A stretch of 64,000 bases of DNA. It comes from Massospora cicadina. Lineage: Eukaryota; Entomophthoromycota; Entomophthoromycetes; Entomophthorales; Entomophthoraceae. A model generated the notes under the pieces. The model was not told where the DNA came from. It ran no database searches and was given only the letters and a program-made list of their open reading frames with translations. Below are positions 11,512 to 48,123 of this stretch, one piece after another. Made by a program: the position numbers and the translations under genes. The stretch covers positions 142,503 through 206,502 of the forward strand of contig JAKSZP010002727.1 of the NCBI GenBank assembly GCA_022478985.1. Reading direction: 5' to 3'. Numbering within the stretch: position 1 is the stretch's first letter; every line of letters begins with the position of its first letter.

Positions 11512-12054
11512 TGTAACGATCGAGACGAATCTCGATCGTACATTTCATTCAGATTCGGATTTTGTGAAACTGAGTCGAATCGCTTTAAAATGTTTTGGTT
11601 TGGTCGTTTTGGGCTGGGTTGTGCCTCACCCGAAGCGCTGCCCATTCCGAAGTTCACTTTGGAATTTTCACCCTAGCATTCCCTTCCTGGGGAGCATTGT
11701 CGGTTGCTCCCCAGATGAGCTCTAGTCGGTGGGCACCTTTGTTTTTATGTTCCTGAATAAAAACAAAGGATGTTTCGGGGTTACCATCTAGTACTAAAAA
11801 AGGATGTTTCGGGGTTAGCATACCTCGCATACCTGTAGTCTTTTTTAAGTTTCATTTCGAGGAAGCTTTCGTGTAGTTGGGTTGGACCAACCACTATTCA
11901 ACCCTTACATAGCCAACTAGTAGTAGGTGATTGTCTGGCACTATCTGCCCAAACCTCTCTCTACTCGGTTAGGCCGCTTTGGTTGCTTGTCGGTGCACCA
12001 AAGCAATATGTAAATATATAGCGGTCGGAACTGGGGTTTTTCCGGTCCGTGACA
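11512..12054 (+). mobile_element. Solo LTR of the TRIM-like family
   Basis: It starts TGTAACGATC and ends GTGACA, and is homologous over its length to the LTRs at 53799 and 55110 (AAGTTCACTTTGGAATT, CCTAGCATTCCCTTCCTGG, GGTTGCTTGTCGGTGCACCAAAG). Flanks TTTAA (11507-11511) and TTTAC (12055-12059) fit a 5-bp duplication with one change. It lacks the roughly 70-bp block holding the TATA box of the other copies, and it contains micro-insertion 1. It keeps CpG sites where the copies near 54 kb have TG/CA. Confidence 0.75.
11769..11818 (+). mobile_element. Micro-insertion 1: 18-nt LINE tail with 16-bp target duplication
   Basis: The insert CCATCTAGTACTAAAAAA (11785-11802) lies between perfect copies of GGATGTTTCGGGGTTA (11769-11784 and 11803-11818). 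The paralogous LTRs at about 54125 and 55440 have the uninterrupted site, so this is an insertion and not an ancestral repeat. The insert equals the 3' end of the LINE copy ending at 63887. Confidence 0.9.
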
Positions 12055-12061
12055 TTTACAC

Positions 12062-12422
12062 TGTTGAACGGATTAATAATTCCATAATAATCCATTGGAA
12101 TAGTAATTCCCCATTTGATTATTTATTTTTTATCTTGATTTCAGTTGATTCTCCTAGAACATTCTAGGCACTTAAATATCCCTAGAAACAGGGTTAAATA
12201 CCTTCAGTCCTTATTACAATGAAGTATCCGATTATAGAGTTTAACTTCCTGTTGCGTTTCTTATCTTTCAGTTTTAAGAAATACCCTTCCCTTAGTGTTT
12301 TAAGTCATAAACCCCCAGGATGACCGATGATGACTGCTGAATTGATGGCCCTAAAAACTCTGAGAGTTACGCTCCACCACCTGCCACTCGGGGAATACAT
12401 CCGAATCCCCTAGTTCCCAACA
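12062..12422. repeat. 361-bp repeat block, copy 2 (LTR-like)
   Basis: Same length as copy 1 at 3506. It starts TGTTG and ends CCCAACA, which gives short inverted TG...CA ends as in an LTR, and is flanked by ACAC on both sides (12058-12061, 12423-12426), a possible 4-bp target duplication. It lies 7 bp after the solo LTR. The element it belongs to is not in the window. Confidence 0.6.
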
Positions 12423-12899
12423 ACACCTGGGGGTTTTAAAATCTGGTGGGGTCACCTTAGATTGAACTTATCTCTATTGAAAAGCTCCACCAGTTGAACT
12501 TTTTTGAACTCCACGGAATTTCATAAGAGGAATTATTTGAAACGATTTAAATTGGTCGATCTACCGAACCAAAGGTTTCTGAGATCCCCATAAGATGGAA
12601 AAGTTTGCCCTCTAAAAGTTTAATCAACCCTCATCCTTGATACCCCAGCTACTCCGATAAATCTGTTATGTAGCGTGAAGGGGGTCTATATGGGGAGGGT
12701 GACGAAAACTCTACTGGGCATCAGCTAGAGATGCAACCTGTTGGACCAATCCGGATATTCTGCCAATCACGTGACACGGTGCGTAGACCTCACGCCATCA
12801 TACAAAGGTTTCCTCCCTCATGTTACGGCATGTCATTGGGTAGCCCAATCCATTGAGGGGTAAGGTACACTCAGCTTTATCCAACCTTTATATTTCTTG
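12423..12899. other. No gene seen
   Basis: This is moderately CpG-containing sequence without an ORF or recognisable repeat, part of the loop between the inverted arms. Confidence 0.4.
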
Positions 12900-12963
12900 A
12901 ACAACTTTATCTTTATTTTATTTTATTTATTCGAGGCAAGCCGACAACAACTTTATCTTTATT
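12900..12963 (-). mobile_element. Micro-insertion 6: 28-nt SINE tail with 18-bp target duplication
   Basis: Perfect copies of AACAACTTTATCTTTATT (12900-12917 and 12946-12963) flank 28 nt (12918-12945). Read on the minus strand the insert is GTCGGCTTGCCTCGAATAAA plus more A/T. This is the 3' end of the SINE family at 13433 (ATTTATTCGAGG on the plus strand). It is a second source of the same kind of minimal insertion. Confidence 0.85.
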
Positions 12964-13418
12964 GAAAACATAATAACGCCAGTGCCGTAACCTTAAACCG
13001 GAAACCCCTTTGAGCGTCGTAGAGTGTTTGCATCGTCAAAAGATATCGGTGGCGGCGTATGAAAATGGTACCGTGCCAAAGTTTGGTCTTCCGTTAAGTA
13101 GGCGTCCATTACAATAAGGGTTCGAGGGCTGGCCTTAAATTCATCAATATTTGGGAGGGGATAGAAAGAGGGTTAAATTGTTCAGATGTGATGCGGATCA
13201 AACCATCCCTCAATGGGTGGTGACGGTGCAAGATCAAGTTAAGCTTGGCTCAGGACCACCCATAGATAAAAAGGTGGTAGGGTGTGCAAAGGTATCACGG
13301 TGTGAAGGGTTTGAAGCAAGGTAGGGATGGTTGGATAGGTTTAAGAGTTGGCACAGTATCGACGTTAAAGGTGATTTCGGAAGGTGGTGGCTTGTATCGG
13401 AACCGGTTTGTAACCGGT
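12964..13418. other. CpG-rich sequence, no gene recognised
   Basis: The open frames that run from about 13284 into the SINE are not supported by any motif and cross the SINE boundary, so I do not call them genes. Confidence 0.4.
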
Positions 13419-13432
13419 GGAAACTTATACCT

Positions 13433-13700
13433 ATTTATTCGAGGTGGGCTGACCTGGGGACAATACCGCACCAATTAATGGGAAAGTTGAATGAATTGGA
13501 AAGGAGGATAAAATCCGGAAAACCTCCATGCGCGGCATATGATAGGCCAGGAACTCCATGGACCGCCTTTGCTATCTCGGTTTGGGGCATTGGTGCGCAA
13601 CGCCAACACAGTCATAGTTGTCCCCTACCCAAAGTTCCTGTACCGGAATCGAACTCGGGGAGGCAGCGGTAGAGGTCCCTACCACTGGGGTATCCTCCTC
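13433..13700 (-). mobile_element. tRNA-derived SINE, copy 1, with 14-bp target duplication
   Basis: Flanks GGAAACTTATACCT (13419-13432) and GGAAACCTATACCT (13701-13714) differ at one base. Read on the minus strand it begins with a tRNA-like head: an A-box-like segment around CCCCAGTGGTAGGG and a B box GAGTTCGATTCC (plus-strand 13645-13656), the internal pol III promoter elements. It ends in CCCCAGGTCAGCCCACCTCG plus AATAAAT. The tail is shared with element X and SINE copy 2, so the SINE probably borrows a LINE enzyme through it. Confidence 0.75.
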
Positions 13701-13714
13701 GGAAACCTATACCT

Positions 13715-14196
13715 TTAAGGTTAATTTTGGAAGCGTAGGAACCCAATACCGTGTTTAATAGGGTTGGAGCTGGATTTTTTCTGGGAGTTTACCAATTGCA
13801 AAACTAACCTTTAAAGTTATCAAAAGCTTTGGGGGTAGATACAGTAATGAATAACTGTTGTCAGGTGTGCCAATAGGCCTGAAAATTAAACTGCTGGCGA
13901 TAGGGAAAACTGAGCATCAAGGTGTTTTAAGGGGGACCATCTAGTACTAAAAAAAGGTGTTTTAAGGGAGTCAGGCCTTTACCGACCAACCATTTACAAT
14001 AAGATCATGGATGAGATTTTTTCAAAGTGGATAGTCAACTTTGATTAAAGGATGAAATTAAAACCAAAAAGCGGGCCCCTTATTGAATACTGTCCGCCGC
14101 ACCCACCTCCTGTGGAAAGGGTTAACTGATGTGAGGTTGTTTCCCCCCATAAACTTACCCATCTGAACTATACCCTATGAACCTGGGGGTAATAAA
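13715..14196. other. End of the CpG-rich loop, no gene seen
   Basis: Only micro-insertion 2 is recognised here. CpG is still frequent at 14070-14110 and drops towards the right arm. Confidence 0.4.
13919..13968 (+). mobile_element. Micro-insertion 2: about 20-nt LINE tail with 15-bp target duplication
   Basis: AAGGTGTTTTAAGGG (13919-13933 and 13954-13968) flanks GGACCATCTAGTACTAAAAA (13934-13953). The insert extends 2-3 nt further 5' than in copy 1 (GGACC) and matches GGGACCATCTAG at the LINE end near 63866. Confidence 0.88.
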
Positions 14197-14626
14197 AGAT
14201 GATTCCAAGTTTTGCCTTGGGGTAAAAAGCTTAACTTCATGATATATGCCTTATGGCTGAGGGTTGTTTAAAACTTTTTTAACATATTTAAGGCTGTTAG
14301 GATATGATACTATCAGTGTGATTTGTCATTTAACTTTTAGTATAATAATAACTGAGATGGTTAGGTTACTTAAGCAACGGTTGGATTAGCTAACTAAAAC
14401 TGTGTATGGCAGCAGGCAGATAGCTGGTAGGCTAAAATTTATTTGGTTTAGATTAAATTGTGTAGCGTTTAGTTGTGGTTAAGGAAATTATCTTATGATA
14501 AAATCACTAAATGCATGGTTATTTCAACCTTACTTCTAAACTATTAATCTCAAATAAACTAGACAAATATTCTATGATGTATATAATTGTTCAGCTGATT
14601 TAGTTGACCCAGTGTTTCAGGTATAA

Positions 14627-14767
14627 AAGTAATCGAGGCAGGTCAACCTTGGGACAAATATACCATACCAAGATTTTTTTGTAGCCAGTACAGGTTTCAA
14701 ACATGTGTTGAACAAAACCTGCACTAGAATGGGAGCAGGAATTACCCTGCCTGGCTAACCACCCTTC
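14627..14767 (-). mobile_element. tRNA-derived SINE, copy 2 (short), with 17-bp target duplication
   Basis: CAGTGTTTCAGGTATAA (14610-14626) and CAGTGTTTCAGATATAA (14768-14784) differ at one base. On the minus strand the head has a TTAGCCAGGCAGGG-type A box and GTTTGAAACC as B box. The tail ...CAAGGTTGACCTGCCTCGATTA matches copy 1 and element X. It is CpG-poor and older than copy 1. Confidence 0.7.
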
Positions 14768-14799
14768 CAGTGTTTCAGATATAAGATGGGTAGTTTTTA

Positions 14800-15700
14800 A
14801 TTTAATTGTTTATACTATTTAGTTGATTTTATTGGTCAACTATAGGGTAACATTTCTGATATTGAACTATAGTACATTATTTCATTTATTTGGTTGATTT
14901 TATTGGCCAATCTGCTAAATTTACTGATCTCCTTCTACATTAATTTTTTTATTAGATTTGGTTGATTTTATTGGTCAATTCATGTTGATTTACTGACCAC
15001 CTTTACAATAATTCATTTTATTAAATTTGGTTGATTTTAGTAGTCAAATTATGTAACAGCAATAGGCATCTATAATGATCTAAGCTTGCTACGTTATGAT
15101 CTCATACTTGCCCAGATTTTGAACAACCCCCAGCCATAGGACATATATCATGTCAATATATATGATATAGATTAGTTGAGTTAATTGGTCAATCTAAGAT
15201 AAATTTACTGATTGCCATCTACAATAATTTATTTTATTAAATTATGTTGATTTTATTGTCAATCTATGCTAGAATTATAACTGATCATCATCTACAATAA
15301 TTCATTTAATTAAATCCAGATATTCTAATTGGTCAATCTAAGGTAAATTTACTGATAACCATATACAATAATTCACCTCATAAATTTTATTTGTTTTATT
15401 GTTCAATCTAAGGTAAATCTACTGATTGCAAATTTAGTATTTTTTATTAGCTCTAGTTATTTTATTGGTCAATCTATACTAAATTTACTGATCACCATCT
15501 ACATTAATTTATTTAATTAAATTCAGTTGATCTGTCAATCTATGGTAAATTTACTGATTGCCTTTATAATAGACATTTTGTTAAATTTAGTTAATTTAAT
15601 TGGTCAGATTATGCAAAAACAATAGCCATTTTAGATCATCTAGTACTAAAAAAATAGCCATTTTAGATAATTTAAGCTTGTCCTGCTATGATCTCATACT
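14800..15700 (+). repeat. 69-bp tandem repeat array, right arm, about 11 units
   Basis: TTGATTTTATTGGTCAAT-like motifs recur at about 14824, 14895, 14962, 15031, 15176, 15249, 15320, 15388, 15457, 15525 and 15594. The steps are 67-73 bp except one of 145 bp, where a CAATAGGCAT...CTCATACTTG block is inserted. Between them lie TAAATTTACTGAT and CATCTACAATAATTCATTT segments. Confidence 0.8.
15621..15668 (+). mobile_element. Micro-insertion 3: 16-nt LINE tail with 16-bp target duplication
   Basis: AATAGCCATTTTAGAT (15621-15636 and 15653-15668) flanks CATCTAGTACTAAAAA (15637-15652), the shortest of the set. It sits in the outermost minisatellite unit of the right arm. Confidence 0.88.
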
Positions 15701-15740
15701 TGACTGGATTTTGAACATACCCCCAGCCATATGACATATA

Positions 15741-17039
15741 TCATGTCTGTCATGAAGCATGCTAATAATGAGAAGACCAGCCTGGAACTCAGAGTAAATT
15801 ACCACCCAAAACCAATCCAGAATGCCATTGGCACAGTCATCCAAAATGACATGTTAAGGTTAGCATACCAGCCATGAAGACCAGCCAGGGGGTGCTTGAA
15901 GGTGAGATCATCTCACTTTTTTGATAAAAATGATCACTAAAGGCTAAAATTTGGGGTTTATTTTGTTAAAAAATTTTTATTTAAAATATAAGATGTGGAA
16001 AATGAGAAAAAAAGTGACAGCGGTACCTGTCAGGGACCACTGCTTATAAGTGCACTGGGGAAATTTGCATCACTTGTGCAACTACCATTGGAATAAACTC
16101 ACAACAATACAGCAATTTGGGCTAACAGACTAATTTGAAACTAATTTAGGTTTGTACTGCTTAGCCAAATTTGTTTTAGGCTCATTACTCAAATCTAATT
16201 TTTTTGTTGCACACATGCATTTGCTATGGTAGCGGCATTTTGGGCAGCTAGCAGATTGCACTCAGGGCCAAGCCACATAAAGATGATCCCAGTTGGTGGG
16301 GAATGGGTTAAACACCTATATACCTGTTGGGATGGTTGTAGCTGGGACACAGTGGCAGCATCTTGGTAGGTTTAGGAATTTTGCACAATTCTGCCACCTC
16401 CTGGAAAAATCTCTGAATATTTTCCACCAGCTTAGTGGAAAGAGCACTGGAAGGAGGGCTGCAACCCTCAAGGGGTATGCCATGACCTACCTCTCATCCA
16501 CCACATGGGCTAAATCACCCTGGGAAAATGAGAGGCATAGGTACTAGCTTTTACCCTTTTTAGCATGGAATGGGAAATGGTCCCAATCTAGATGGAGGGG
16601 GTCCTACCCCAGACTTATAATATCAAAAGTTGATTTATTGCTATCACTTCACCAATGCTGAAATTAAGTTTATCCATCAATAAATTATTCTCACAATTAA
16701 ATTTATCACTTCCAGTCCATTTTAATATACATGCTAAATTACTGGTCAGATACTGGAAAATCCTTACAACTGGACTAATACTTACACCAATCCTAACAGA
16801 TACTGGACCAATTCTTACCACCTCTTTTGCACGGTAGTATCACCTCTTAGAAAAAGTAACCTGGTATAGTTTATCAAAAGCACCACTTTTTAGTTTATGC
16901 CTACTGCCCTAATTAGAGCAGTACATGCAACTTTTAACAGCTACAGTCACAAAAGGGAATCCTGACCAGCAGAGCTTAGCTCATAGAGCTGACAGCCTAT
17001 AATAACTTCATTTTATATGAAAAATAAAAACTATCACCA
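15741..17039. other. No recognised gene
   Basis: AT-rich, CpG-poor sequence. A frame at 16293-16547 could be old transposon coding but shows no motif. Part may be 5' UTR of the LINE that follows. Confidence 0.35.
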
Positions 17040-17504
17040 AATCAGCAACCCATCTAGTGAGGGGCATCCACAATACTAATAAAAGTGTTGGCAATGAGGC
17101 CCAAGTAAACCAAACAAACTTGACCAGTAAGAATGCCAGCAATTAGACCCAAGTGCATCATGGAAACTGGAAACTTTGTCACAAATGCCAAAATTGATGA
17201 AACAAAAATAGAAACAACTAGTAAAATGGGGACACAAACCTCTCCAAAGGCAGCACAACCTCAATGGGTACCAACAGCCACTGCTTTGGAAAAGACTGAT
17301 AGTTCTACCAAATGGGCAACTTGTGGTTAAGCAAAGGTGCTAGTGGGAAGCACCACTAAAAAGTCCTTTCTCAGCCCAGTACTCACAATACTGAGCACCC
17401 ACCCTCCTCAGGGATGGCAGAAGCCCTACTTACTAGGGGGCCAAGACCAACAGTTTGTTCTCCATGCAGGGAAATGATAACCCTAAGTTAAACAAAGATA
17501 ATCA

Positions 17505-17998
17505 GGGGGATCCAATATCAATACTACTTTGAGAATTTTTTGGCAATTTTTCCTGACAAAAATGAGTCCATCATTTGACTAACCCCTTATTGAACCCAAA
17601 AAAATTTGATGAGGTTATGGTCACTTTGGGAATCCCCAATAGCTATAAAGCTAAAATAAATTTTTTGGCAGTTCTCCCTATCAAAAATCAGTCCCTCCAT
17701 TTGACTAACCCCTTATCAGGCCCAAAACCTGATAAGGTGCAGTTACTTTGGGAATCCCCAATAGCAGTAAAACTGGAGGAAATTTGTCAGCAATCATCTC
17801 TGAAAAAAATTTGTCCCCCCAATCAAATAACCCTTTATCAAGTCCAAACCTTAATGAAATAACAATCACTTAAGGTGCCTCCAATATCTATAAAACTGGG
17901 AGAAAATTGCTGGCAGGGATTTTAGATAAAATTGGTCCCCTCATTTGACTAACCCCTTGTTGGGCTTAAACCCAGATTAGGTTACAGTTGTTTTGGGA
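17505..17998 (+). repeat. Four tandem units of about 120-125 bp
   Basis: CATTTGACTAACCCCTT recurs at about 17572, 17699 and 17945, with a diverged third unit near 17820 (AATCAAATAACCCTTT). Each is followed by a [CT]TTTGGGAATCCCCAATA-type segment. The array lies just upstream of the best ORF1 stretch, a position where some LINEs carry promoter monomers; that role is inference. Confidence 0.7.
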
Positions 17999-18377
17999 TC
18001 TTACTTGGACTTGTCAGACAACTTAAACCCACTGCCAAAAGAGATTAAAGTAACTCTAAAAACCCCTGAATCTGCTGAACCAATCTAAGAAACAAACAGT
18101 GCACCCTGTAACACTTTGGTGAGATATACTCCAATGCAGGAGGATATTTTGAACCATAGATGCATCTCTGCACATGAGGTGATGCAATGGAAAATCTGAA
18201 GTTCCCATAGAAATAGTGACCCAATTGATTTAAAAGCCATATCCCCTGCTACAGCGGCAACATGGCAAACAAACAATTTTTCTGCTGGAGCCATGAAGCA
18301 GTGGATTGATACTTAAATCCTAATTGGGTTGGCAATAATCTTCAAATCATTGTGCATATGCATAGAGCAGGCCCTCA

Positions 18378-18890: not shown

Positions 18891-18897
18891 TGTAAAA

Positions 18898-27917: not shown

Positions 27918-28641
27918 TTACCCTCTCCTCCTTCTTGGGATCCACCCATCCTCCAGGGGCGTTTGCTAAGGAGAAGTTCTTATGTGCTGGCGGCAACTTC
28001 ATAGCAGCAACGGCTGGCTTAGGCTGAGATCCTGCAGCCTCAGGAAAATGATTATGGAAAGATTTGATCAGGTCTTGGGCATGTACACAATCCCGTGCTG
28101 GCACTCAACTGTTCTCTGCCATGTCAAACCCTTTCCGGGATACCAGGTACTCAAGGCGTCGCTTAACCCAGCGGGAGGCTACTATTTCCTCCACTTCCCA
28201 TTCTGGTGCCCCATTTACAAGATAAGCCTCGGGAGTTACAGGAGGAGGGCCCTCAAACAATGTCAACTTGCTTTCACAAAAGATGGAGAAGATCTGAAAC
28301 GCGGAGGGAAGATCCAACTGGTATGAGGCATGTCCCATCTTTCTAACTACCCGGTAAGGACCAATCCTCTTTGGACCCAGCTTTTTGCATGACTGCTTGA
28401 TAGGGATGTTGCGAGCATTAAGCATCATGAGATCCCCTTCCTTGTATGCTGGACCCACTCGGCGCTTTCCATTGGCATTCTCCTTATAAACCAGCATAGC
28501 CGCCTCCAAACTTGTGGACACCCCTTGATGGACCTTCTTGAGAGTCTTAGCAAAGTCCAATACCGCTTCCACTTTGGAACCACAGCTGGGCTCCATGTTA
28601 AACGCAGGGTTAAAGCCATGGTTAGCAAAAAAGGTGAACAA
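27739..28641 (-). pseudogene. B-young integrase C-terminus, chromodomain and LTR-encoded tail
   Basis: Frame 28641-28105 (178 aa) holds the integrase C-terminal segment (GDLMMLNARNI, LGPKRIGPYRVV) and at its end a chromodomain: PEWEVEEIVASRWVKRRLEYLVSRKGF, in pieces PEWEVEEIVASR and LEYLVSRKGF. Chromodomains of chromoviruses bind histone marks and steer insertion into heterochromatin, which fits the nested pile seen here. The family's W-K-G-Y ends as R-K-G-F, so one aromatic cage residue is changed. A stop at 28105 is followed by a further frame (28104-27739) that crosses the polypurine tract into the LTR. Confidence 0.8.
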
Positions 28642-29330
28642 CTGATTGATGAATGCAAAGTGTTGTTGTAGCTAAACTGGGCCATGGGAAGGTGAGGAAC
28701 CCAATCTGAAAGGTCTGCGGTGGTGTAAACGCAGAAATTGTTCCAAGCACTGGTTCACTCGCTCAGTCTGCCCATCTGATTGGGGGTGATAAGCATTTGA
28801 ATGGCAGGGGCGGATCTAAAAAGTTTTACACAACTCTTCCCAAAAGATGGAGGTGAACTGGGGTCCCTGGTCACTAATGATTTCTTGAGGAACCCCATGA
28901 AGATCAAATACATGGGCGACGAAGATCCTGGCCATTTCAGCGCCAGTTATAGTTGTTCTGCAAGGAATAAAGTGGGAGAACTTTGTAAAGCGGTCCACCA
29001 CCACCATGATTGCATCATACCCATCTGAAACGGGTAACTCCACAATAAAATCCACTGATAGGGAAGTCCAGGGCCCTTCAGCCTTTTGGACTGGTATCAG
29101 CAACCCTGCTAAAGGTTGCCGATTGGGTTTCATTTGATTGCAGATCAGGCACTCTTTACAGTACCGCCCTACCTGAACAGGAAAGCCCTTCCAATTGTAA
29201 GTGCATTGTATCAACTCCAAGGTTTTTGCTTTTCCAGGATGACCAACGGTGATTCCGTCATGATGGTCCTGGTTGATCTCCAGGCGCAGTGGTTCAGCAG
29301 GAACCCAAAGCGCCCCTGAAACCACACCAT
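28642..29330 (-). pseudogene. B-young integrase zinc-binding region and catalytic core
   Basis: Frame 29325-28816 shows HHDGITVGHPGKAKT, then CKECLIC (the H-H-C-C zinc site), then the core with SVDFIVELP (first Asp), IISDQGPQFTS (second Asp) and, after a frameshift near 28800, [12 protein letters not shown] (Glu). The D-D-E triad residues can all be read, but in two frames. Integrase joins the cDNA to the host chromosome and makes the 5-bp duplication seen. Confidence 0.85.
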
Positions 29331-29465
29331 CTCATCCTCCACGTGATAACCCCTGGATAAGTCCTCCTGATTCAGGGCGCTCTTAGCGAGAATAACAGCA
29401 TATTCAGCTGATAACAGCTGAGAAAGAACTAATTTCTTAAACATGCTATATTCTGCTGCATTTTC

Positions 29466-30035
29466 CTAAGGCATGAGCGCTGGCGTATGTACCATGGACT
29501 TAGTAAGTTGAGGTAAAATCATACTCAGTGGAATCATCAACTGGGTGTTGTGAATCTCTACCTCTTTTGGATTGGGAGCCAAAGCAGGGTTGCGGCTCAA
29601 AGCATCCGCCAAACCATTCTCCTTGCCCTTGATGAACTCATAAGAAAATGTAAATAGGGCAAGGGTCTCATGCCAACGGGTCTGACGTGGTGTTAGAACA
29701 TGTGGAGCATGGTAGTACAACAGGGCTTGGTGGTCAGTGTGTACCCAGAATGGTTGAGAAGAGCCATGTAGGTGGTGACGCCAATAAATCAGCGCCTCCA
29801 CCACTGCTAATAACTCCTTGTCATATACGGCGTAGTTTAACTCATGCAGAGACATTTTCCTAGAAAAATATCCCATGGGATGCTTGGACCCATCTTCACC
29901 CACCTGTAACAGGGCAGCCGCAATGGCAAAGTTGGAAGCATCTGAGGACACAATGAACTCCTTTTCAGGATCAACATGGCGAAGGATGGATGTGGATAAC
30001 AAGGTGCACTTCACCGCTTGGAAAGAATCCTCCAA
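29466..30035 (-). pseudogene. B-young RNase H domain
   Basis: A 189-aa open frame with DAS (SSDASNFAIAAALLQ), the KELLAVVEAL Glu, TDHQALLYY and ADALSR motifs, so the four acidic catalytic residues are present. It degrades the RNA strand of the RNA-DNA hybrid. It was originally continuous with the RT upstream and integrase downstream. Confidence 0.88.
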
Positions 30036-30790
30036 AATGGGGGGACCACTGAAGCACCTTGGCCCTGCTAGCCTTATATAAGAGAGCTGCCACCTCAGAG
30101 AGATTGGGTGTGAACTTCTTGAGGAACGTACATGTCCCCAAAAAGCTCCTCAGTTCCTTGACAGAGGTGGGGGTAGGCCACTCACGAATAGCCTTTTCCT
30201 TGTCTGGAGTTATCATATGGCCCTGTTCAAAAACGACGTTGCCCAGAAAAGTAACCTGGGACTTAAAGAATTCGCATTTACTAATCTTGAGGGTAAGGCA
30301 ATTGACCCTCAATCTCTCCACTACTTGTCAAAGGTGTACTGCATGTGACTCCTGATCAGGGGAAAACACCAGAATGTCATCCATTTAGGCAACTGCACAT
30401 ACCCCTCAATAAGTCTCCCAATGCAGCATCAATGCGGCGTTGAAAGATGGCAGGGGCATTCTTAAGCCCAAAGGGCATAACCCGAAACTAGAAAATTCCT
30501 TTTCTGGTGTGGAATGCAGTTAACCACTCCTGGCCCTTCTTTATCCGTATTTGATTGAACGCATTGAGGCAGTCCAGCTTGAAGAAGACCTTCGCCTTCT
30601 CCACATAGCGCGCAATCTGGGAATCCAAAGGGATGGGATTGAGGTCTGGTACAGTGACATTGTTAAGGTTCCCATAGTCCACACATGGGCATAAAGTACC
30701 ATTTACTTCCCCACAAAGAGAAGTGGGGAGCATACAGGGGAGGTACGCTGAAAAATCGCACCTTTGGCTACCTGTTCCTTAACCCACACA
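30036..30790 (-). pseudogene. B-young reverse transcriptase, catalytic Tyr replaced by stop
   Basis: Motifs in order: CVDYGNLNNVTV..PDLNPIP, KLDCLNAFNQIRI, VMPFGLKNAPAIFQ, then the active site where AVA-stop-MDDILVFSP replaces Y-M-D-D: the Tyr codon is TAA at about 30393. Further on come KISKCEFF and VTFLGNVV. A second stop (GIF then TAG) lies near 30487. The polymerase is therefore dead by at least two stops. Confidence 0.85.
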
Positions 30791-31794
30791 TCCAACGCAT
30801 CTTCCTCCTGTACGGTCAATGGGTAAATGGGGGAAGAAATATGCACCAGATCCACAGTAAGTTTAAATTCACAATCAAACTCAGAATGTTCTGGTAGCGT
30901 ACTAGCTGAAGCTGCATCAAAAGAAGATGCCAACTCCTCCAGACAGGAAGGTAAGGAAAGTCCCACAGTGGGCTTCAGCAAAGGGGCAAGATATGAACTG
31001 GGAACATTGGGCCAATGGGGTAATTTGCCTGGGGCGTTATTCTCAGACAGAGGAACAATCAACTGGTGACCATTTGTTAAAGACAAGGATAAAGTGTTTT
31101 CTTTAAAATTAGTTCTGACGTCAAACTTCCGCCACCACTCAACACCCAAAATGATGGGAAACAAGAGGTTTCTGATAGCTTGAAACTGGTTAGACAATAG
31201 ATAAGAACCTACCTGGAAATTGACTGACTCCATGATGTTTAGTGTGGGGATACCTTGAGAAGCCCCACCTCTAACCATACCACCTGGTGAGTAACTCAAC
31301 TCAAGGTAGTCAGCAAGGTTTTGGTCAATAAAATTATTTGAGGCACCAGTATCCACCAAAATAGTTGTGCTGAACTTTCCATAAGAGGATGTAAGGGTTA
31401 CAGTCAACAAGAAGTATCCAGAATGGGATTTATTCAACGCAGAAAACGCCATCAACTCACCAGAAAATTCTTCCTCTGGCTTGAAAAAGCCATCAGAGTA
31501 TGTTTTGGAATCATAGAAGGAGAAAGGATAGTGGGCAACTCTTACTACTGAGGCCACATATCCTACCACACCTTCTGCAGGTGCATATACATCTTTATAT
31601 TTGTGGCGAAGTTCCTTTTCCAATTCCTGAGAACCCCTAATCATGGTAGGGGTCAAACGAGGGTTCTCAGGAGTAATCTGATAAACTGAAATTGAGTCCT
31701 CATCCAGACCATATGAGCAAATAAACGGTTCATTTTGGGATAAATTGCTCACGTTATAAAACAAATTTTTTGATTTGAACAAACCACCTCTCAT
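30703..31794 (-). pseudogene. B-young protease and N-terminus of RT (363-aa frame)
   Basis: This is the longest intact frame of the window. Retropepsin active site TTILVDTGASNNFID lies at about residues 143-157, followed by the flap region and ILGVEWWRKFDV, the usual end of chromoviral protease. The last 70 residues are the RT start (ELTVDLVHISSPIYPLT, VCSPLLFVGK). The protease looks intact. The frame ends by frameshift inside the first RT motif. Confidence 0.85.
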
Positions 31795-31829
31795 TCCAAG
31801 GGTTCAGTGCACATTGTTATCCAGGGCTA

Positions 31830-35030: not shown

Positions 35031-35035
35031 CCCTG

Positions 35036-36191: not shown

Positions 36192-38240
36192 CATCCCCCT
36201 CTTGCCTAGATTTCCATCAAGAAAAGGACCGGGGCATGAGAACACCTCTTTGAACACTCAGTTGAATACTTCATTGGCTCAATTGGAGTATGATTATAAA
36301 TATTTAATGCTGCTTGGGATGACCTTTGGCATGCGGCGCTCTTTCTCTTCCTCCTCACTACTGCCTACTCAGAGCGCGGTCCCCATGATCTACTATTGTG
36401 CCAGGCTGATCAATTTACTTGTGACTATATTAGTCCCACAATCTGGTTCCCCCCATCAGGGCATATGACCCACTGTCATATTCAGGATTCTTGGTCCGGC
36501 ATCCTTGGTTTACTGATTTTCTCCTCATCCTAGACAGAGACTCTTGCCATCAATGGTTGTTTTGTGGTTCAAAAAAGAATACTTGTTTATGTTTGCCCTC
36601 ATTATTTCTCTCATAACCTCTTGACTCAAGTCATTCCTAATTCTTCTCTTGGAGAACTTATCCCATTAATTTTGAGATTAATTTCTCCAAAATTGTAGCT
36701 TAATGGATTGTACAGTGCATAATGTCGACTTCCATATAAGTCCAACATCCCCCTCTCATCCAGTTCATATGTCAAATTCCAAGTTGTGATACCAGCAGCT
36801 TCTAAATAGCTTGTATGATCAAGACTTCCGGCTCTTCCAGCAGATGAGTCAGGATTCATGGCAGAACCTCTTCTATGGTCCTTCCAGGACTCATACGCCT
36901 AGTATGGAACCAGCAGCTAGTCCTTCCATTGAATTACTTGAAATGGTAACCAATCCCTCCAAAACCAGGCTTGCAATTGTTTCGAATAACTCTCAGCAAA
37001 TTCTTCCTCTGTCATCAATTCCAGAGTTTGACTTCAAAACTCTCCTGGATTCAGCCCCTTTTGCAGATGCACTGACCATTGTCATAGATGCTCTGGAGAT
37101 TATGCCATTTGCTCTTGATTGCTCTTTTCTTGCTGGGTTGGACCTGCTTCCTGAGTTCCTCTTATGACTTGGACAATACTACAAATCTGCTTTCCTGGCT
37201 ACTGAGCTCACCATCAGTAACAATATTCATTTCAAGCTATCCTATGCTGAACTATGGGCCCAAGTCACCGAGGCTTTGTCCCCAGCGCTGAATCCCTCTG
37301 ATCTTGAGAACATCCTAGATTGGGATACTGCCGCTTATGCTCTTTGCTTTTCTGGCCAAGTTCTCTGAAGTCAGTCCATGAATCTTCCAGCCTCTCCTGG
37401 GTTTCACCGCTCCTTCAGCTTCAGCTTCCAAGAAGCCCATAGTCATCTCTTGCAGGATTTCATTCATTCCCTGCATGACTATCTCTTTGCCAGCGCTTTC
37501 CATCAATATCTTCCACTGATGGCGTTAGTAGGGGGCATGATTTTGGAAACCCCCATCAAGCATCCCTTGTTTGCTGCCAGCCCATATGTCCGGTGTTCTT
37601 GCTGAAGCCCATCATCAGGCGCACAAGACTAATCTTCTAGCTCTGGTACCATATCATGATTACTCAGGGTTATTTTCTGACTGCCTCTTCTTATACTGTT
37701 GCTTTCCTCCACACTCTGAGATTTCGTGATTGGCTTCTTTTAACATTTAAATTTCCCTTCCCCTAGTTGCTTTCTTGCAGGGTTCTGCATCCACTCAAAG
37801 AATGTGGTTTCATGTAGGTCTAGCTTTTGCTAGCATCCAATCTCACATCAATTTTGTTAGGCTGTTCATTCCTACCGCGATCCATCCTCCCTCCCCCAAG
37901 AGGTGACATAAGCGGAATCATCCCTGTATCAAGGACAATTAATAAAAATAAAAATTATAAAACTATATCAGCTTTTTCTATGCGGTTTGTATTAAATTTT
38001 TTCCCAATATCTTTTATCAATTTTTTATTTTTATTCTTCTTTTTTCCATGGGACTTGACTTTGTTTCAGTTCAGCGGTACATCTTTTTATTTTTTTCCCC
38101 AAACTGGGTCCTGGGTACTTAAACCTGCCAGTTTTCTATGGTTCAGAGGTATTTTTTTCGTATTTAATCATCTAGATTGGTTCAGAGGTCCTTTTTTCAG
38201 ACTTGATTTATTATCAGGACATCTACAACTTAATGGTTCA
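36192..38240. other. Element C extra region between integrase and 3' LTR
   Basis: About 2 kb that the related element D does not have (in D the integrase C-terminus almost reaches the LTR). On the element's own strand no ORF is recognisable. On the opposite strand a degenerate reading can be followed (next entry). This is an accessory segment of unknown origin. Confidence 0.6.
36811..37605 (+). pseudogene. Antisense ORF remnant in element C, unrecognised
   Basis: The plus-strand frame 36811-37167 (118 aa) contains the phrases SIPEFDFKTLLDSAPF and ALDCSFLAGLDLLPEF. It goes on after a stop as LGQYYKSAFLATELTISNN and LSYAELWAQVTEALSPALN, and ends in 37378-37605. The mixture of hydrophobic and acidic helices looks like protein sequence rather than chance, but I recognise no family. 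It runs opposite to gag-pol. Antisense accessory ORFs next to the 3' LTR are known in some plant gypsy elements; whether this is one is inference. Confidence 0.35.
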
Positions 38241-41890: not shown

Positions 41891-41921
41891 CTTCAGATAA
41901 TTCTTCTAGATTCTAAGCAGT

Positions 41922-43440
41922 TCAAATCTTGTCTGCCAGTTGTTGGGCATATGGCTGGGAAACTTCCTTGATTATCTCAGGGTCGATTCTCTTTGCCCCA
42001 GCTCTGGTCACGGCATTTACATCCAAATTAACCACTTGATACAGCTGATCCTGTTTGTCATCGTTCAAAAACAGATCACTGATATCAATTTCCTTGGTCA
42101 TGATGTTGGGAGAAACAGGCTTCTCCACAGCTCTAGACTGTTCCCCATCTAGGCCGCAGGCTCTTTTCATGATTCCTTGGTGGCATATAACTCTTTCACC
42201 TGGACCACGTTGATCTGATCCTTTGGCTTCTTACAGTGCATGGCGAAATGTCCTTTTTCCACCACATTGGTAGCAGACCTTTTCCTTCTTATTCAACCAT
42301 CTGAATTCTTTGGGCTTTTTCCCTGGCACGGTTCAGTTGGCCGTTTCTTTAGCACCTTTGTTCCCCTTTGTGGGGTTCAAATTGCACACTGGATGAATTT
42401 AAAGCTTCTATTTGGGGCATCAAATGGCGCTCTTAAAATATTTAAATTATCTACCATTTTTAAGGTAGTTATTTCTGTTGCAAACATGGAAGATATCATG
42501 CAATGCAAATCGTGATAGGGCCAAAGGGCCACTTGTAAGGCTTCTGGCATTGAAGTCATCCAATACTTTCGCTCCAACCAGGATATGCGACTCCTGGTAA
42601 AACTGATCCGCAAAGCTTGCTAGAGACTTATCTTTATGGAACTGGATTCCCATAAACTCCTGTTTGCGCTTCAACATGCATGTCAGACTCCTGAATTCTT
42701 TCATGATGGCCGCCTTTGCTTCCACATATGACCAGCTGTCCCCCTCCAGGTGAGGTAATACTAAATTCAAACAGTCAGTATCTAAGCAATTCATGATTGT
42801 CAACGTCTTTTGACAATTCCCGTAGCCATACATGGTCATATTGATTAGTCTGAAAAATGCTGGGGCGTTATCCTGATAGAACGTTGGAAATTTCAGCATT
42901 GCCTTAAATTTCTCTGATTTTCTATAGCCAATTCTCTAAGTTTGGCCACTTGGCTAACTTGAGGAGTGACTTCAGGCGTCATCTCTGAAATGGTAGCAAA
43001 AGCAGGTGGCATGTTCCTTGGGGTATTAGACTTCCCAAGTATTATGCAAGGACTTCTTTCTTCAGCATCGCTTGCCATATCTGGCTCACAACCGCATTTG
43101 TGAGGTTTAAGTTCCTCCACCTGTTTGATCAGTTGCTCTATATCCGCGTTGAATTTTTCTCAAATGAACGCGATCTTCTTCTCACTCCATTTTCAGGTAT
43201 AAGACCTCTTGAACGAGGTCCCCTTCTTTCTTCTTCAATGAAATTACTTTCCTAAGTAACTTGTTCCCAAAACTTGCAACATTATCTATCCCTTTCTCCA
43301 CCTTGGCGACTCATTCTTCCAAGGCTGCAATTTCTAATGATCTGCTGAGTTTAGGGAATTCTGATTCACAGTGGCTAATTCCATCCACAGTTTGCGTAAC
43401 TTGTCTTTGTATGATATTCTTATAAATTTATTAACTCAAC
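41922..43440 (-). pseudogene. Element C Gag with zinc knuckle
   Basis: The capsid part is frame 42899-42447 (150 aa; FYQDNAPAFFRLINMTMYGYG, and EFMGIQFHKDKSLASFADQFYQE, each matching elements D and E). The zinc knuckle near 42280-42235 reads CYQC then, one frame on, EKGHFAMHC, so a 1-nt shift lies inside it. A charged linker (42170-41922) leads to the protease. The N-terminal part (to about 43440) is frameshifted. Confidence 0.78.
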
Positions 43441-43445
43441 TACAC

Positions 43446-43463
43446 CCCTGTAGTGAGCACAAA
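43446..43463 (-). promoter_or_regulatory. tRNA-type primer-binding site, element C
   Basis: TTTGTGCTCACTACAGGG on the minus strand, 2 nt from the LTR. The D copy (TGGTGCTCACTACAGGG) has the TGG start complementary to a tRNA CCA end; here two bases have changed. Confidence 0.65.
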
Positions 43464-43465
43464 CT

Positions 43466-44621
43466 TGTAGAAGTTTACTTAGGTGGTCATTATTGACAAA
43501 CAACCCCAGTAATCTTTTTACTGCACAGGTTCAGTTTCTTGTGCACTTTGTCTGCATTGTATAGTATATTAGATTATCAATTGATAATAGTATGACGACT
43601 ATTATCAGTAGTTGAGTGTGAATTCTTATATCTTGGCCCAACGCTCGTCCAGTATTCCTGATTAAATATTTGAGATGTCATGATCTAGGGATTCTTTCCC
43701 TTGTTCTGTCCAACCCAATCTTCTTTGAGATTCCCTGATGACAGTCTCTTCAGTCCAACACACAGTCAGCAGAAATCCCCAATTGTGCCTCCTTCTTCTC
43801 TAGATCCCCACTCAGATCTTTACTATTTTCAATAAGAGTCTCCTAATTATCGGACACAGCAATAATATCCTTGAGAAGAATAGCACAATTGGAAGTTAAT
43901 AATAGTTTACTACTTAAACTATATACTGGATGAAACACTATAGAACTTCTTTTCTAAATGCTGTTCTCATAAATATTGTTTTTTATCATAAGTGAATTCT
44001 ATTGAATTTATAGTGGGGATTCAGTCATCTAACCCTCAGTTGACACTTAACAATGAAACGGCAGCCATTGTCATTGAATCACACATCCTCATCTCAGCAG
44101 TAATATTCTTCCTCATCCTGGCTAGGATTCCGTCGTTGGAAATCCTCAAGACCTAAATGGAAAGAGTCAGAAAACGTGTCTCTAACGTTTTTCTATCAAT
44201 CCAAGTGAACAAACCATATTTGGCTAGCGACCTGCTTAGGTAATGGGACTTATTACACATTAAGGCAGGTCACGCACCAACTGATTGATTCGCTAGTTGC
44301 AGGCAGCAAAACTCGTCTCACAACTTGCTATTCATTCCCAATCAGTTGGTGATGAAGCCTGACTAATCCCAATTGGTACACCTGATAGTTAATCACTATC
44401 AGATGCCTCTATTTCGTCAGTAGCTCCGCACAACAAGATCTCAAGTATTTGTCCAGATCAATCTCCAACAGATATGACCAGGCGAATATCCCAAAATCCC
44501 CAAAATGTAGTTACTCTGAAACTCAGGTTAACCGATTTCAAATTCACTTCGCCTTAGGGAATTATCCCCTAGCTATTCCTGGTAATCTAGCAGGCTGGGA
44601 ATATGGGCAAAAATCCTAACA
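43466..44621 (-). repeat. Element C 5' LTR
   Basis: 1156 bp. A perfect 16-bp palindrome ATTATCAATTGATAAT lies at about 43573-43588, with one change in the other LTR. Confidence 0.88.
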
Positions 44622-44626
44622 CCCTA

Positions 44627-46385
44627 AGGCAGGCTTATTCCTGATGAAGAGTTTTCTGATGAGGTGTTGCATTTTAGCTTTTAAAGGTCATTCTGGATAT
44701 TTTTTGTTGACTTCTACCATTTCATCCCTTTAAGGAAAATCAGCACAACTACCTTGGTGGATACTGGAGACTCTGAGAATTTTACTACCAAGACTTAGCT
44801 GACTACATTGAGTTGAATTACTTGCCGATGGTATGGTTAGGAGAGGGGCTTCCCAAGGCATTTCTACATTTAATGTTCTGGGGTTAGTGGATTATTAAGT
44901 TGGCAAATATCATTTGGCGGACCACTTCCAAGAAATCAAAAACCTTCTGTACCCATTATTTTGGGAGTAGAGTGTTGACAAAAGTTTAACATTAAAACCG
45001 AATTCTAAGACAATAACTTGTCCCTAACTTTGGAGAATAATCATATAAGTTGTCCCTTTGTCTAAAGGAAACTATTAGGGTAATATGCCCTACAGGCCTA
45101 AGATCCACACTCTCAGTCTTGCTCCGCTGCTGAAGCCCTCTCTGGAGGTACCCTTACCTTCCTGTTTAGAGAGGCTGAAATCTTCTTTTGATGCAGCTTC
45201 AGCCAATGTACTTCCAGCTCATTCAAAGTATGAATACGAGATCAAGCTCACTGTTGATCTGGTGCATATATCTTCCCTAATTTGCTATTTAACTTTATGT
45301 GAGGAAGCGGCATTAGATGTGTGGGTTAAGGAGCAGTTAGCCCAAGGTCCAATATTCAGCCTATCTCCAGTATACTCCTCACTTCTAACCATCTAGTACT
45401 AAAAAAATACTCCTCACTTCTCTTTGTGGAGAAGGCTGATGGTACCTTACGCCCATTCATAGATTATGGAATTCTCAATAATGTCACAGTACCAGACTTG
45501 TATCCCATTATGTGGGCCCACAGATTTCATGCTATGTGGAGAAGGCGAAGGTCTTCTCCAAACTGGAATGTTTAAACGCGTTGAATCAGATCTGGATTAA
45601 AAAGGGCCATGAGTGGCTAACCGCATTACATACCAGAAAAGGAATTATCCAGTTTTGGGTTATGCCCTTTGGGCTTAAAAACGCCCCTGCTATCTTTCAA
45701 CGCCATATTGATGCAGCTTTGGGGACCTGCTGGGGGTATGCGGTAGCCTACATGGATGATACCCTGGTGTTTTCATCTGATCATGAGTTCATGCAGTAAA
45801 CCTTTGGCAAGTGGTGAAGAGGTTAAGGGCAGTCAACCTTGTGCTGAAAAAAGTATGTGTGAGTTATTTAAGTCCCAGGTCACCTTCTTGGGCAACGTCA
45901 TGTTTGACCAAAGCTATATAAAAACTCCAGACAAGGATAGGCAATTTGTGAGTGGCTGACCCCAACTTTGGTCAAGGAATTGAGAGTTTTTGGGACATGT
46001 AAGTTCATTAATAAATTAACGCCCAACCTTTCTGAGGTGGCAGCGCCCTTATATAAGGTGAGTGGGGAAAAATGCCCAGTGGTCCCCCATTTTTCAGGAT
46101 GCCTTCAAAGAGGTAAAGTGCACACAGTCGTCCAAGTCCATCCTTCACTAAGTAAATCCAATAAAGGAGTTCATTGTGGCTACTGATGCCTCTAACTTTT
46201 CCATAGCGGAAGCCTTATTACAATTAGAAAAAGATAGAATAGAGAATCCGGTAGGGTGTTTTTCCTGAGAGGTGTTTCTTTATGAGTTAAACTACGCCGT
46301 TTATGACAAAGAGTTATTGTCAGTGGTTGAGGTGCTTACCTATTGGCGTCATCACTTGCATGGCTCATCCCAACCATTCCATGTT
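44627..46385 (+). pseudogene. B-old protease, RT and start of RNase H
   Basis: It resumes after element C with EEFSDE and STTTLVDTGDSENF (protease DTG kept), then RT motifs: LTVDLVHISSLI (45250), CYVEKAKVFSKLECLNALNQIWI, VMPFGLKNAPAIFQRHIDAAL and AYMDDTLVF near 45748-45774 (catalytic YMDD intact), then VTFLGNVMF, and RNase H up to HHLHGSSQPFHV at 46385, where element D is inserted. Broken by many frameshifts and by micro-insertion 4. Confidence 0.85.
45372..45421 (+). mobile_element. Micro-insertion 4: 20-nt LINE tail with 15-bp target duplication
   Basis: ATACTCCTCACTTCT (45372-45386 and 45407-45421) flanks AACCATCTAGTACTAAAAAA (45387-45406). It lies in the N-terminal RT coding of B-old; the B-young counterpart (VCSPLLFVGK) is uninterrupted, which gives the empty site. 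The 35 added bases shift the frame. Confidence 0.9.
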
Positions 46386-46948
46386 TGTTATAAAATTGGA
46401 TGGTATTGTTAGGATCTGTCATATTTTTTGTACAGGTTGAACCCACTGAACAACAGACAGACAATGTGGGGATCGTCGGTCCTTCAGACACACTTGAAAA
46501 TATACTAAAAATTAGGAGCAATCGCCCCAATCGACTTTTTTATATATCTTAATAATTACAGCGATCTTCCGCTGTTCTGCTCTCTCTATTATTAACAACC
46601 TTCTTTATATCAATCACCCATCTTGCTTATATACAGCGGCTTCAGACAATGCCACTCTAATAGCTTGGGATATTCTATTCTGCCAATTTTCCTCAAATTT
46701 GGCTTATTATTCTCTAGCTATCTATCGCCCTAATTTTAGGCGATTTGATTCATATTTGTCAATTGTTGACATCGCCTTATTGCCTAATCGCCTTATTTAG
46801 AGGTGATCCAATAACAAACCATTATATCCAAATATTGCCTCGTCTCAAAGCACTCAAATAATCATAACTGATATCATGTTTGGTGGATTCTTCCCAATCC
46901 ACCCTAACTGTCCCAAGATTATTGTCCAGTCATATCGGAATTGTGACA
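46386..46948 (-). repeat. Element D 3' LTR
   Basis: It contains short inverted ATCGCC/GGCGAT motifs around 46720-46800, present in both LTRs, of unknown role. Confidence 0.88.
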
Positions 46949-46964
46949 TTACCCCCTCCCTGAC

Positions 46965-48123
46965 TGGACAATAAGGCTCCTATTGATTGTATGGTCAGAG
47001 GAACTTCGTGTGCGCTCAGTTAATGATCTAACCACTTGCGGGGTCCTTGATAGTATACACATCAGCCCATGTTTTTCTATAGCTTCGAAAGGACCAATCC
47101 AAATACTGGCTAGCTTATGTTTCCGCCCAATCCCATGTTGGTCTTGGAAGAGAACCATATCTTTTTTTTAGTACTAGATGGTTGGAAGAGAACCATATCA
47201 TCTCCTTTGAACTGTGCCAAACCGCTATGATGTACTTGATTGGCAACCTGATTCCTGATCTTCTTGGCTAAGCTGAAGCTATATGATTCAGTTTGTAATT
47301 TGATCAGAGTGTTCACCAGGTTAGTCAAGTAGCAATGGGGTTCTATTCCGCTGGTGTCTTCTACACACAAATAAAGTAACGCTGGAAGAGCCAGGTGTAG
47401 GCCATATAGTAGTTGAAAGGGGCTCTTTTTTATGGCGGAATGGTTACTAATGTTATAGATGAACACAGCAGTGGAAAGGAGGGAGCTCCAATCGGAAGGG
47501 TAATCCATTACTAATTTTTGTAGTATGTTCACCAGAGTCCCGTTCAACCATTCAACCATTCCATTGGATTTGGGGTGGTATGGGGTCATCAGAACCCTAC
47601 GGATTCCCATAAGCTCATTCAGTTTGGGGAGGATGTGCGAGGTGAAGTTGGTTCTATTATCAGTGAGAATAAACTGAGGGCAGCTGTGTCACTGAAAAGT
47701 TTATTCCATCACAAAATTAACCACTGTAACTGCCCCCAAATCTCGTATTGCCAATACTTCAACCCATTGGGTCAAGTGGTCAATAACCACAAGCATGTAT
47801 TTACACCAGTTGGCTACTGTTGACAAGGGACCAATGATGTCAAGGGAAGCCATGTGCCAAGCAAAATGTGGTTTCACTACCCGGTATGAAGTCTTATGGT
47901 GGAATGGCTTCTCCACTTGGCACTGATGGCAACAGGAAATAGTTTTGAGCACATTGAAGCTCATGCTTTCCCAATAATACTGAGGGCGCAACAACTCCAT
48001 TGTCTTATGCACCCCACCATGTCCGACTGCCTTGTGGGCACTCATAATAATTCCTGGCCATGTTGAGGGTCGCGGAAAATTCACCATAGAATTAATAATC
48101 TGCTTGTACAGTTCCCCATCCAT
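46965..48123 (-). pseudogene. Element D integrase
   Basis: Zinc region AHKAVGHGGVHKT and CCHQCQVEK, core SLDIIGPLS (first Asp) in frame 48123-47701, then RVLMTPYHPKSNGMVEWLNG with the catalytic Glu in frame 47610-47110. The segment with the second Asp falls in a frameshift near 47650-47700. The C-terminal GDDMVLFQ motif is interrupted by micro-insertion 5 and resumes as MVLFQDQHGIGRKHKLASIWIGPF (frame 47158-46949; the parts read MVLFQDQHG and LASIWIGPF). No chromodomain is seen. Confidence 0.82.
47144..47199 (-). mobile_element. Micro-insertion 5: 20-nt LINE tail (minus) with 18-bp target duplication
   Basis: Perfect copies of TTGGAAGAGAACCATATC (47144-47161 and 47182-47199) flank 20 nt (47162-47181) whose minus strand is CCATCTAGTACTAAAAAAAA. 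It interrupts the integrase C-terminus of element D, so it is younger than D. Confidence 0.92.

What the first reader, a model, noticed from the sequence alone, without database searches (positions are those of the whole stretch)
11769..47199. Five minimal LINE-tail insertions (16-20 nt) with 15-18-bp target duplications
The same core CATCTAGTACT plus 5-8 A occurs at 11785, 13934, 15637, 45387 and (reverse strand) 47162, each between near-perfect direct repeats of 15-18 bp that differ from site to site. Two sites have an empty paralogue in the window (the LTRs near 54125 and 55440; B-young RT near 30700). The sequence is exactly the last bases of the LINE copy ending at 63887. The simplest reading is target-primed reverse transcription that stopped after copying only the poly(A) and about 11-16 nt of LINE RNA, yet was completed as a normal insertion. 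Five in 64 kb, more numerous than the two longer LINE copies that carry this tail, suggests a LINE that very often aborts, or one whose RNA 3' end is processed to a tiny product. I do not know a description of such uniform 'tail-only' insertions. Annotation tools would miss them because they are too short.
Basis: seen in the sequence. Interest (0 to 1): 0.92.

Follow-up and report, generated by a model that had tools for sequence, protein, structure and literature searches.

The report
Swarm of 20-letter LINE tail insertions
A jumping gene in this large, unidentified genome has left, by estimate, over twenty thousand tiny insertions that hold only its last dozen or so letters plus a few A's, which suggests that its copying usually stops almost at once yet is still sealed into the chromosome.

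Summary
All five tail-only inserts in the window sit between exact 15-19 bp repeats; three have empty paralogues. No repeat of 13 bp or more flanks 105 chance copies of the motif or 312 other A-runs. The 1.47-Gb genome holds 33,786 exact copies of CATCTAGTACTAAAAA, the reversed pattern 2.

In the first 100 listed places, 86 have a duplication by a score that 6 of 500 mispaired flanks reach. Lengths are bimodal: 67 hold 11-28 nt of LINE end, 0 hold 29-35, 19 hold 36-43. Nine are longer copies, five unclear. Extrapolated, about 23,000 insertions are tail-only.

Best explanation: target-primed reverse transcription that stops within the last 11-43 nt of the LINE RNA body, then premature second-strand synthesis with a normal duplication. 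Shown: tail, duplications, nick-site bias, two stop zones. Inferred: the cause of the stop (a hairpin, weakly supported) and the completing step. It is an extreme variant of 5' truncation; ten full-text searches showed me no description of it. Species not identified.

The parts
11765..11817 (+).
13919..13968 (+). Tail-only insertion 2: repeats AAGGTGTTTTAAGGG at 13919-13933 and 13954-13968 around GGACCATCTAGTACTAAAAA; no paralogue covering it found in the window
15621..15668 (+). Tail-only insertion 3: repeats AATAGCCATTTTAGAT at 15621-15636 and 15653-15668 around CATCTAGTACTAAAAA; empty paralogues near 4.1 k (minus) and 15.1 k
45372..45421 (+). Tail-only insertion 4: repeats ATACTCCTCACTTCT at 45372-45386 and 45407-45421 around AACCATCTAGTACTAAAAAA; inside what reads as a gypsy-type reverse transcriptase relic; empty paralogue near 30.7 k (minus)
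47144..47199 (-). Tail-only insertion 5 (tail on the minus strand): repeats of 18 bp at 47144-47161 and 47182-47199; inside a stop-free frame (47110-47688, minus) that I read as the end of a gypsy-type integrase, without a Pfam match
63219..63886 (+). 5'-truncated LINE copy of about 668 nt that ends in the same tail; C-terminal zf-RVT motif with one in-frame stop; target duplication of 15 bp with one mismatch at 63204-63218 and 63888-63902 (base 63887 unassigned)
63844..63871 (+). Candidate last hairpin of the LINE RNA (AUG..UCCC / GGGA.C.CAU), followed by CUAGUACU and 7 A; stop zone 1 covers its 3' arm and loop
   Evidence: predicted in folds of 45-58 nt only, not stronger than shuffles; other pairings in the 70- and 135-nt folds

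Best explanation
These are genuine LINE insertions made by target-primed reverse transcription (TPRT) that end almost at once. The LINE endonuclease nicks the bottom strand at T-rich sites (top strand roughly T(Y/G)|AARA); the 3' end pairs with the short A tail of the LINE RNA (about 7 A); the reverse transcriptase copies the A's and then usually stops 11-28 nt in, in a stretch that a short-range fold places in the 3' arm and loop of a last hairpin (GAUG..UCCC...GGGA.C.CAUC-UAGUACU-A7). If it passes that stretch it next stops 36-43 nt in, at the 3' edge of an AAUAAA. About 1 in 11 goes on to a longer copy. The second strand is nevertheless cut 12-23 bp away (range of the duplications that I could score) and second-strand synthesis completes the insertion, so that a 20-nt insert carries a normal duplication. 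Shown: identity of the tail with the end of longer LINE copies, duplications, empty sites, two stop zones, nick-site composition. Inferred: the hairpin (or a protein bound there) as cause of the stop, and premature second-strand synthesis as the completing step.
For: Exact 15-19 bp duplications at 5 of 5 window sites; 0 of 105 chance copies and 0 of 312 other A-runs reach 13 bp. Three empty paralogues. 33,786 genome copies against 2 reversed; 18,943 extend to GGGACC, 12,051 to GGTTGGGACC, and AATAAACATCGATGAATCC, one subtype of longer end, occurs 2,278 times. Of the first 100 places 86 have duplications at score 9 (6 of 500 mispaired) and 81 at score 12 (0 of 500). Lengths: 11-28 nt 67, 29-35 nt 0, 36-43 nt 19. 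Counting bases shared with the duplication, the commonest end is 13 nt, 17 of 67, just 3' of GGG. Nick site, 81 places: first base of the duplication A in 78, second A in 72, second base before the nick T in 46 (the A's, and the lack of A just before the nick, partly come from how I extended the repeat). Junctions, 67: no microhomology in 29, 1-4 nt in 19, extra nt in 19. Passages of PMC7617806: human LINE-1 ORF2p was seen with the top strand already nicked just after TPRT initiation, and the authors propose that premature second-strand synthesis gives 5' truncation. Passages of PMC2104539: a fungal LINE reverse transcriptase switches template at preferred positions.
Against: The hairpin is weakly supported. 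Its fold is no more stable than shuffles (z 0.41, 0.11, 0.23, -0.42); in the 135-nt fold of the 3' UTR (z -1.68) and the 70-nt fold the same bases pair elsewhere, though GGG stays paired; I did no covariation test. The mode at 13 nt depends on counting shared bases: measured from the duplication's edge the lengths are spread, 8, 9, 8, 3 and 9 at 11 to 15 nt. Stop zone 2 lies a few nt beyond the hairpin, which the hairpin alone does not explain. One clear and one doubtful short insert with unrelated tails (12900-12963, 38139-38189) hint that early stopping may not be specific to this RNA. Five of 100 places show no duplication by score (L120, L136, L141, L144, L163); nor did the nine longer copies within the 60 nt that were scanned, as expected for longer inserts. 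The search pattern needs 11 nt of tail, so shorter inserts are invisible to it; one with 4 nt (TACT plus A's) turned up in L144, so the left edge is not measured.
Confidence: 0.7

Rival explanations
1. The template is a short RNA. The LINE transcript is cut near its 3' end (for example next to AAUAAA or at the hairpin), and the reverse transcriptase copies these short 3' pieces to their ends, in the manner of a minimal SINE.
Against: The 11-28 nt class has scattered ends, which a single cut does not give; no RNA data were available; how an RNA of about 20 nt would reach the LINE protein is unclear.
Confidence: 0.18
2. Host end-joining or another host factor captures the nascent cDNA early, whatever its sequence, so any LINE RNA in this genome gives tail-only inserts.
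For: A short insert with an unrelated A-rich tail and an exact 18-bp repeat (12900-12963) and a weaker one (38139-38189). Passages of PMC2666801 report longer ZfL2-2 inserts in Ku70 and Artemis mutants and propose that Ku can obstruct reverse transcription.
Against: It predicts a smooth length distribution, not an empty 29-35 nt zone; junctions show no strong use of microhomology (19 of 67), although I computed no chance expectation.
Confidence: 0.1
3. They are remnants of longer LINE copies that lost everything but the tail by deletion.
For: None found; deletions are common in old repeats.
Against: Duplications lie next to the short insert at both ends in 86 of 100 places, and empty paralogues match the site without the insert. 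Divergence between duplication copies is low: 27 of 1,137 bases in motif class A, 11 of 292 in class B.
Confidence: 0.01
4. The motif is a chance A-rich string, an assembly or adapter artefact, or a DNA transposon footprint.
For: Short A-rich motifs are easily over-read.
Against: 33,786 against 2 for the reversed pattern; duplications of variable length (12-23 bp), which DNA transposons do not make (recalled); the tail continues into LINE coding sequence in the window's longer copy.
Confidence: 0.01

Closest known systems
5'-truncated LINE insertions (human L1, ZfL2-2; PMC2912911, PMC2666801, passages seen)
   Same: A tail, duplications of 12-23 bp as scored here (peak 14-16 bp for full-length L1 in PMC2912911), fixed 3' and variable 5' end, T-rich nick site akin to TT/AAAA, extra nucleotides at some 5' junctions (14.6% of truncated L1 in PMC2912911; 19 of 67 here).
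   Different: Here 86 to 91 of 100 inserts hold about 43 nt or less and lengths cluster in two zones; microhomology is seen in 19 of 67 against nearly 80% of truncated L1 in PMC2912911. The ZfL2-2 construct in PMC2666801 carries its marker cassette in the 3' UTR and so could not see tail-only events (my inference).
Premature second-strand synthesis model from human LINE-1 TPRT structures (PMC7617806, passages seen)
   Same: A top strand nicked at initiation would allow very early completion.
   Different: The paper argues from human ORF2p structure; here the extreme product that the model allows is seen in the genome of an unidentified eukaryote.
Fungal MGL-LINE / WEIRD / Mg-SINE chimeras of Magnaporthe (PMC2104539, passages seen)
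   Same: LINE reverse transcriptase leaves its RNA at preferred positions; 10-20 bp repeats.
   Different: There it jumps to another RNA after 230-5461 nt; here the stop is at 11-43 nt and in most inserts nothing further is added.
SINEs with a LINE-like 3' tail (recalled)
   Same: Short, numerous, share the LINE 3' end.
   Different: No promoter part and no body: the insert is the tail alone.

Membership tests
LINE (non-LTR retrotransposon) insertion by TPRT | Fixed 3' end with A-rich tail, shared with longer coding copies | tested here: met
   C-terminal zf-RVT match E 8.4e-6, 26.8 bits, just under the 27.5 cut-off, read with X at the stop; no match when the piece after the stop was scanned alone
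LINE (non-LTR retrotransposon) insertion by TPRT | Target duplications of variable length | tested here: met
   5 of 5 in the window; 86 of 100 in the genome, 12-23 bp
LINE (non-LTR retrotransposon) insertion by TPRT | Empty site at a paralogous place | tested here: met
   3 of 5 window sites; no paralogue covering sites 2 and 5 in the window; not tested for the 100 genome places
LINE (non-LTR retrotransposon) insertion by TPRT | T-rich nick site of the APE-endonuclease kind | tested here: met
   81 places; partly favoured by the way ambiguous A's were assigned
LINE (non-LTR retrotransposon) insertion by TPRT | Reverse transcriptase and endonuclease of the source element | not tested
   only the C-terminal part of the element was read, in the window; no full-length copy was looked for or assembled
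SINE | Own promoter-bearing body (tRNA, 7SL or 5S derived) | tested here: not met
   only LINE-tail letters and, at some sites, a few extra nt lie between duplication and tail; no tRNA or Rfam match in the window
DNA transposon or MITE | Fixed-size duplication and terminal inverted repeats | tested here: not met
   repeat length varies 12-23 bp, one-sided A tail

The most novel reading that the evidence does not exclude
In this genome the main product of a LINE is not a copy of itself but a 20-nt scar: its RNA ends in a device (a short stop region, perhaps a hairpin, plus a short encoded A tail) at which reverse transcription halts, and the protein cuts the second strand so early that the scar is sealed with a normal duplication. 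Tens of thousands of such scars form a hidden class of insertional mutation that annotation misses.
Probability: 0.42. Interest if true: 0.9.

Novelty: new variant of a known kind. Interest (0 to 1): 0.82.

Why it matters
Marker assays with the cassette in the 3' UTR, and ordinary repeat annotation, would miss tail-only events, so the ratio of aborted to completed LINE insertions is hard to know. Here a genome keeps the record: about ten short inserts (up to 43 nt) for each longer one in the 100 places read, at two stop zones, with ordinary duplications. That makes an open question testable from sequence alone: whether second-strand cutting needs a long cDNA. These sites suggest that it does not. 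It also adds a class of mutation (a gain of some 30-40 bp, insert plus duplication) that could be mistaken for an ordinary small indel.

Tried and rejected
Species: not identified. The 85 bacterial or archaeal and 20 viral stretches with the motif behave as chance and all 105 served as the control. Rfam at gathering threshold gave nothing in the window or in 18 of the 20 longer loci. The Rfam family search of the genome did not complete.

Short edge: ATCTAGTACTAAAAA, which would help show whether inserts stop before 11 nt, did not complete. Nor were ACCATCTAGTACTAAAAA, a gapped longer pattern, CTAGTACTAAAAA, CATCGATGAATCC and CATCGATGAATCCCC.

Longer copies: of five with about 4 kb upstream (L109, L111, L113, L121, L122) only L113 gave a duplication (16 bp, one mismatch, insert about 502 nt); L165, L172, L188 and L193 had only about 300 nt upstream and gave none.

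Papers: ten searches answered, open-access library only. Of PMC2912911, PMC2666801, PMC2104539, PMC6895275 and PMC7617806 I saw passages; of all others listing entries.
Full report
WHAT IS IN THE WINDOW. CATCTAGTACTAAAAA occurs six times without mismatch; allowing two mismatches, shuffles average 0.09. Five copies are isolated and one ends a LINE fragment. Around the five the longest exact direct repeats are 19, 15, 16, 15 and 18 bp. As controls, 105 chance copies of the same 16-mer from bacterial, archaeal and viral contigs have no repeat above 6 bp, and of 312 other A-runs of five or more in the window (the LINE's own included) none reaches 13 bp and one has 12; this second control tests inserts of 11-19 nt only. 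Outside three masked repeat regions the window has 8 exact repeats of 15 bp or more with a gap of 10-60 nt; five are these sites; 100 shuffles give none.

EMPTY SITES. Self-comparison shows related copies of the host repeats without the insert for site 1 (near 54.1 k and 55.4 k), site 3 (near 4.1 k, minus strand, and near 15.1 k) and site 4 (near 30.7 k, minus strand). Alignment places the extra bases at the insert plus one repeat copy; gap totals at the site are 34 and 36 for site 1, 31 and 32 for site 3 and 33 for site 4, where 34, 32 and 35 are expected. No window paralogue covers sites 2 and 5.

THE SOURCE. The longer copy at 63219-63886 has its own 15-bp duplication with one mismatch and encodes, with one in-frame stop, a C-terminal zf-RVT motif (E 8.4e-6, 26.8 bits against a 27.5 cut-off, read with X at the stop; the part after the stop alone gave no such match).

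THE GENOME. The window lies in an unnamed assembly of 1,469,884,898 bases in 16,968 contigs. The motif occurs 33,786 times, the reversed control twice. Longer patterns fall off fast: 18,943 with GGGACC, 12,051 with GGTTGGGACC; AATAAACATCGATGAATCC, which marks one subtype of longer copies with or without an exact tail, occurs 2,278 times. So 21,735 of 33,786 tails lack an exact GGTTGGGACC upstream; some of these will be longer copies with a mutated end.

ONE HUNDRED PLACES. I fetched the first 100 listed places (contigs C1-C7; loci L106-L203) and scored duplications allowing mismatches. 86 of 100 pass a score of 9 and 81 pass 12; right flanks paired with the wrong left flank pass in 6 of 500 and 0 of 500. 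By motif the script filed 73 as tail-only, 19 as mid-length and 8 as longer; by eye L111 belongs with the longer ones, making nine. By measured length the 86 with duplications fall into 67 with 11-28 nt of insert before the A's, none with 29-35 and 19 with 36-43. Five places (L120, L136, L141, L144, L163) show only weak repeats; by their letters four look tail-only and one mid-length, which would make 71, 20 and 9. Scaling 67 to 71 per cent to 33,786 copies gives about 23,000 tail-only insertions: an extrapolation from the first contigs, not a count. Divergence between duplication copies is 27 of 1,137 bases in motif class A and 11 of 292 in class B; the A-run averages 7.6.

WHERE COPYING STOPS. 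Counting bases shared with the duplication, the LINE match of 67 tail-only inserts ends at 11 nt in 7, 12 in 5, 13 in 17, 14 in 6, 15 in 6, 16 in 5 and 17-25 in 21. Measured from the edge of the duplication there is no single mode: 8, 9, 8, 3, 9 and 5 at 11 to 16 nt. The zone covers GGGACCATC and the bases before it, which short-range folds place in the 3' arm and loop of a hairpin. Of the 20 mid-length places 18 begin at or within about three A's of CATCGATG or CATTGATG, at the 3' edge of AAUAAA. Junctions have no microhomology in 29, 1-4 nt in 19 and extra bases in 19. The nick site reads roughly T(Y/G)|AARA in 81 places, with the caveat that shared A's were given to the duplication.

MECHANISM. 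TPRT is shown by tail, duplication, empty site and nick site. Early stopping is shown by the lengths. The hairpin as cause is inferred and weak: the short folds are no better than shuffles, and in the 70- and 135-nt folds the same bases pair elsewhere. How so short a cDNA is completed is inferred from work on other elements: PMC7617806 (passages) reports the top strand nicked just after initiation of human LINE-1 TPRT and proposes that premature second-strand synthesis truncates inserts; PMC6895275 (passages) proposes a branched intermediate for R2. Ordinary duplications around 11-nt inserts suggest that cutting of the second strand does not need a long cDNA.

AGAINST. A window insert with another A-rich tail and an 18-bp repeat (12900-12963) suggests that early stopping may be broader than this RNA. 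In L144 an insert of only TACT plus A's lies between 16-bp repeats, so stops before 11 nt exist and my search pattern misses them. A short-template RNA remains possible, above all for the 36-43 nt class. The species, the full element and its RNA were not seen.

NOVELTY. Truncated LINE copies are classical; a LINE most of whose sampled insertions are tail-only, in two sizes, I did not find in ten full-text searches of an open-access library, of which I opened five papers for passages. I file it as a new variant of a known kind.

Noticed in passing
window 12900-12963 (minus strand): 28-nt insert GTCGGCTTGCCTCG plus an AATA-rich tail between exact 18-bp repeats: looks like a tail-only insertion from another A-tailed RNA; its tail occurs once in the window.
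   Followed up: partly
window 38139-38189 (minus strand): Insert ending GATTAAATACG plus A7 between 12-bp repeats; could be a third kind of tail-only insertion or an old tandem duplication.
   Followed up: partly
window 8812-8862: 15-bp exact repeat around 21 nt without A tail; with one mismatch the repeat runs to 20 bp, so a small tandem duplication is likely.
   Followed up: partly
L144:32-74: Insert of only TACT plus A's between 16-bp repeats: a 4-nt LINE tail insertion met by chance in a stretch fetched for another site.
   Followed up: partly
mid-length class, for example L116, L123, L131, L138, L146, L150, L162, L186: Second insert class of 36-43 nt starting near CATCGATG just 3' of AAUAAA; the sharp end may mark a bound protein or an RNA end.
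   Followed up: partly
L122, about 40-75 nt upstream of the core: Longer LINE copy in which the coding end runs straight into GGCGTAATTCAATAAAC, with most of the 3' UTR missing when compared with the window's copy: internal deletion or template jump.
   Followed up: no
window 28105-31803 and 48081-50750 (minus strand): Degenerate gypsy-type LTR elements (aspartic protease, RNase H, integrase, Tf2-1-like SH3 by Pfam); further relics by motif near 40.3 k, 45.7 k and 62.2 k.
   Followed up: no
window 14700-15700: AT-rich tandem array of about 66-71 bp units, related to 3.9-4.8 k; similar repeats in L107.
   Followed up: no
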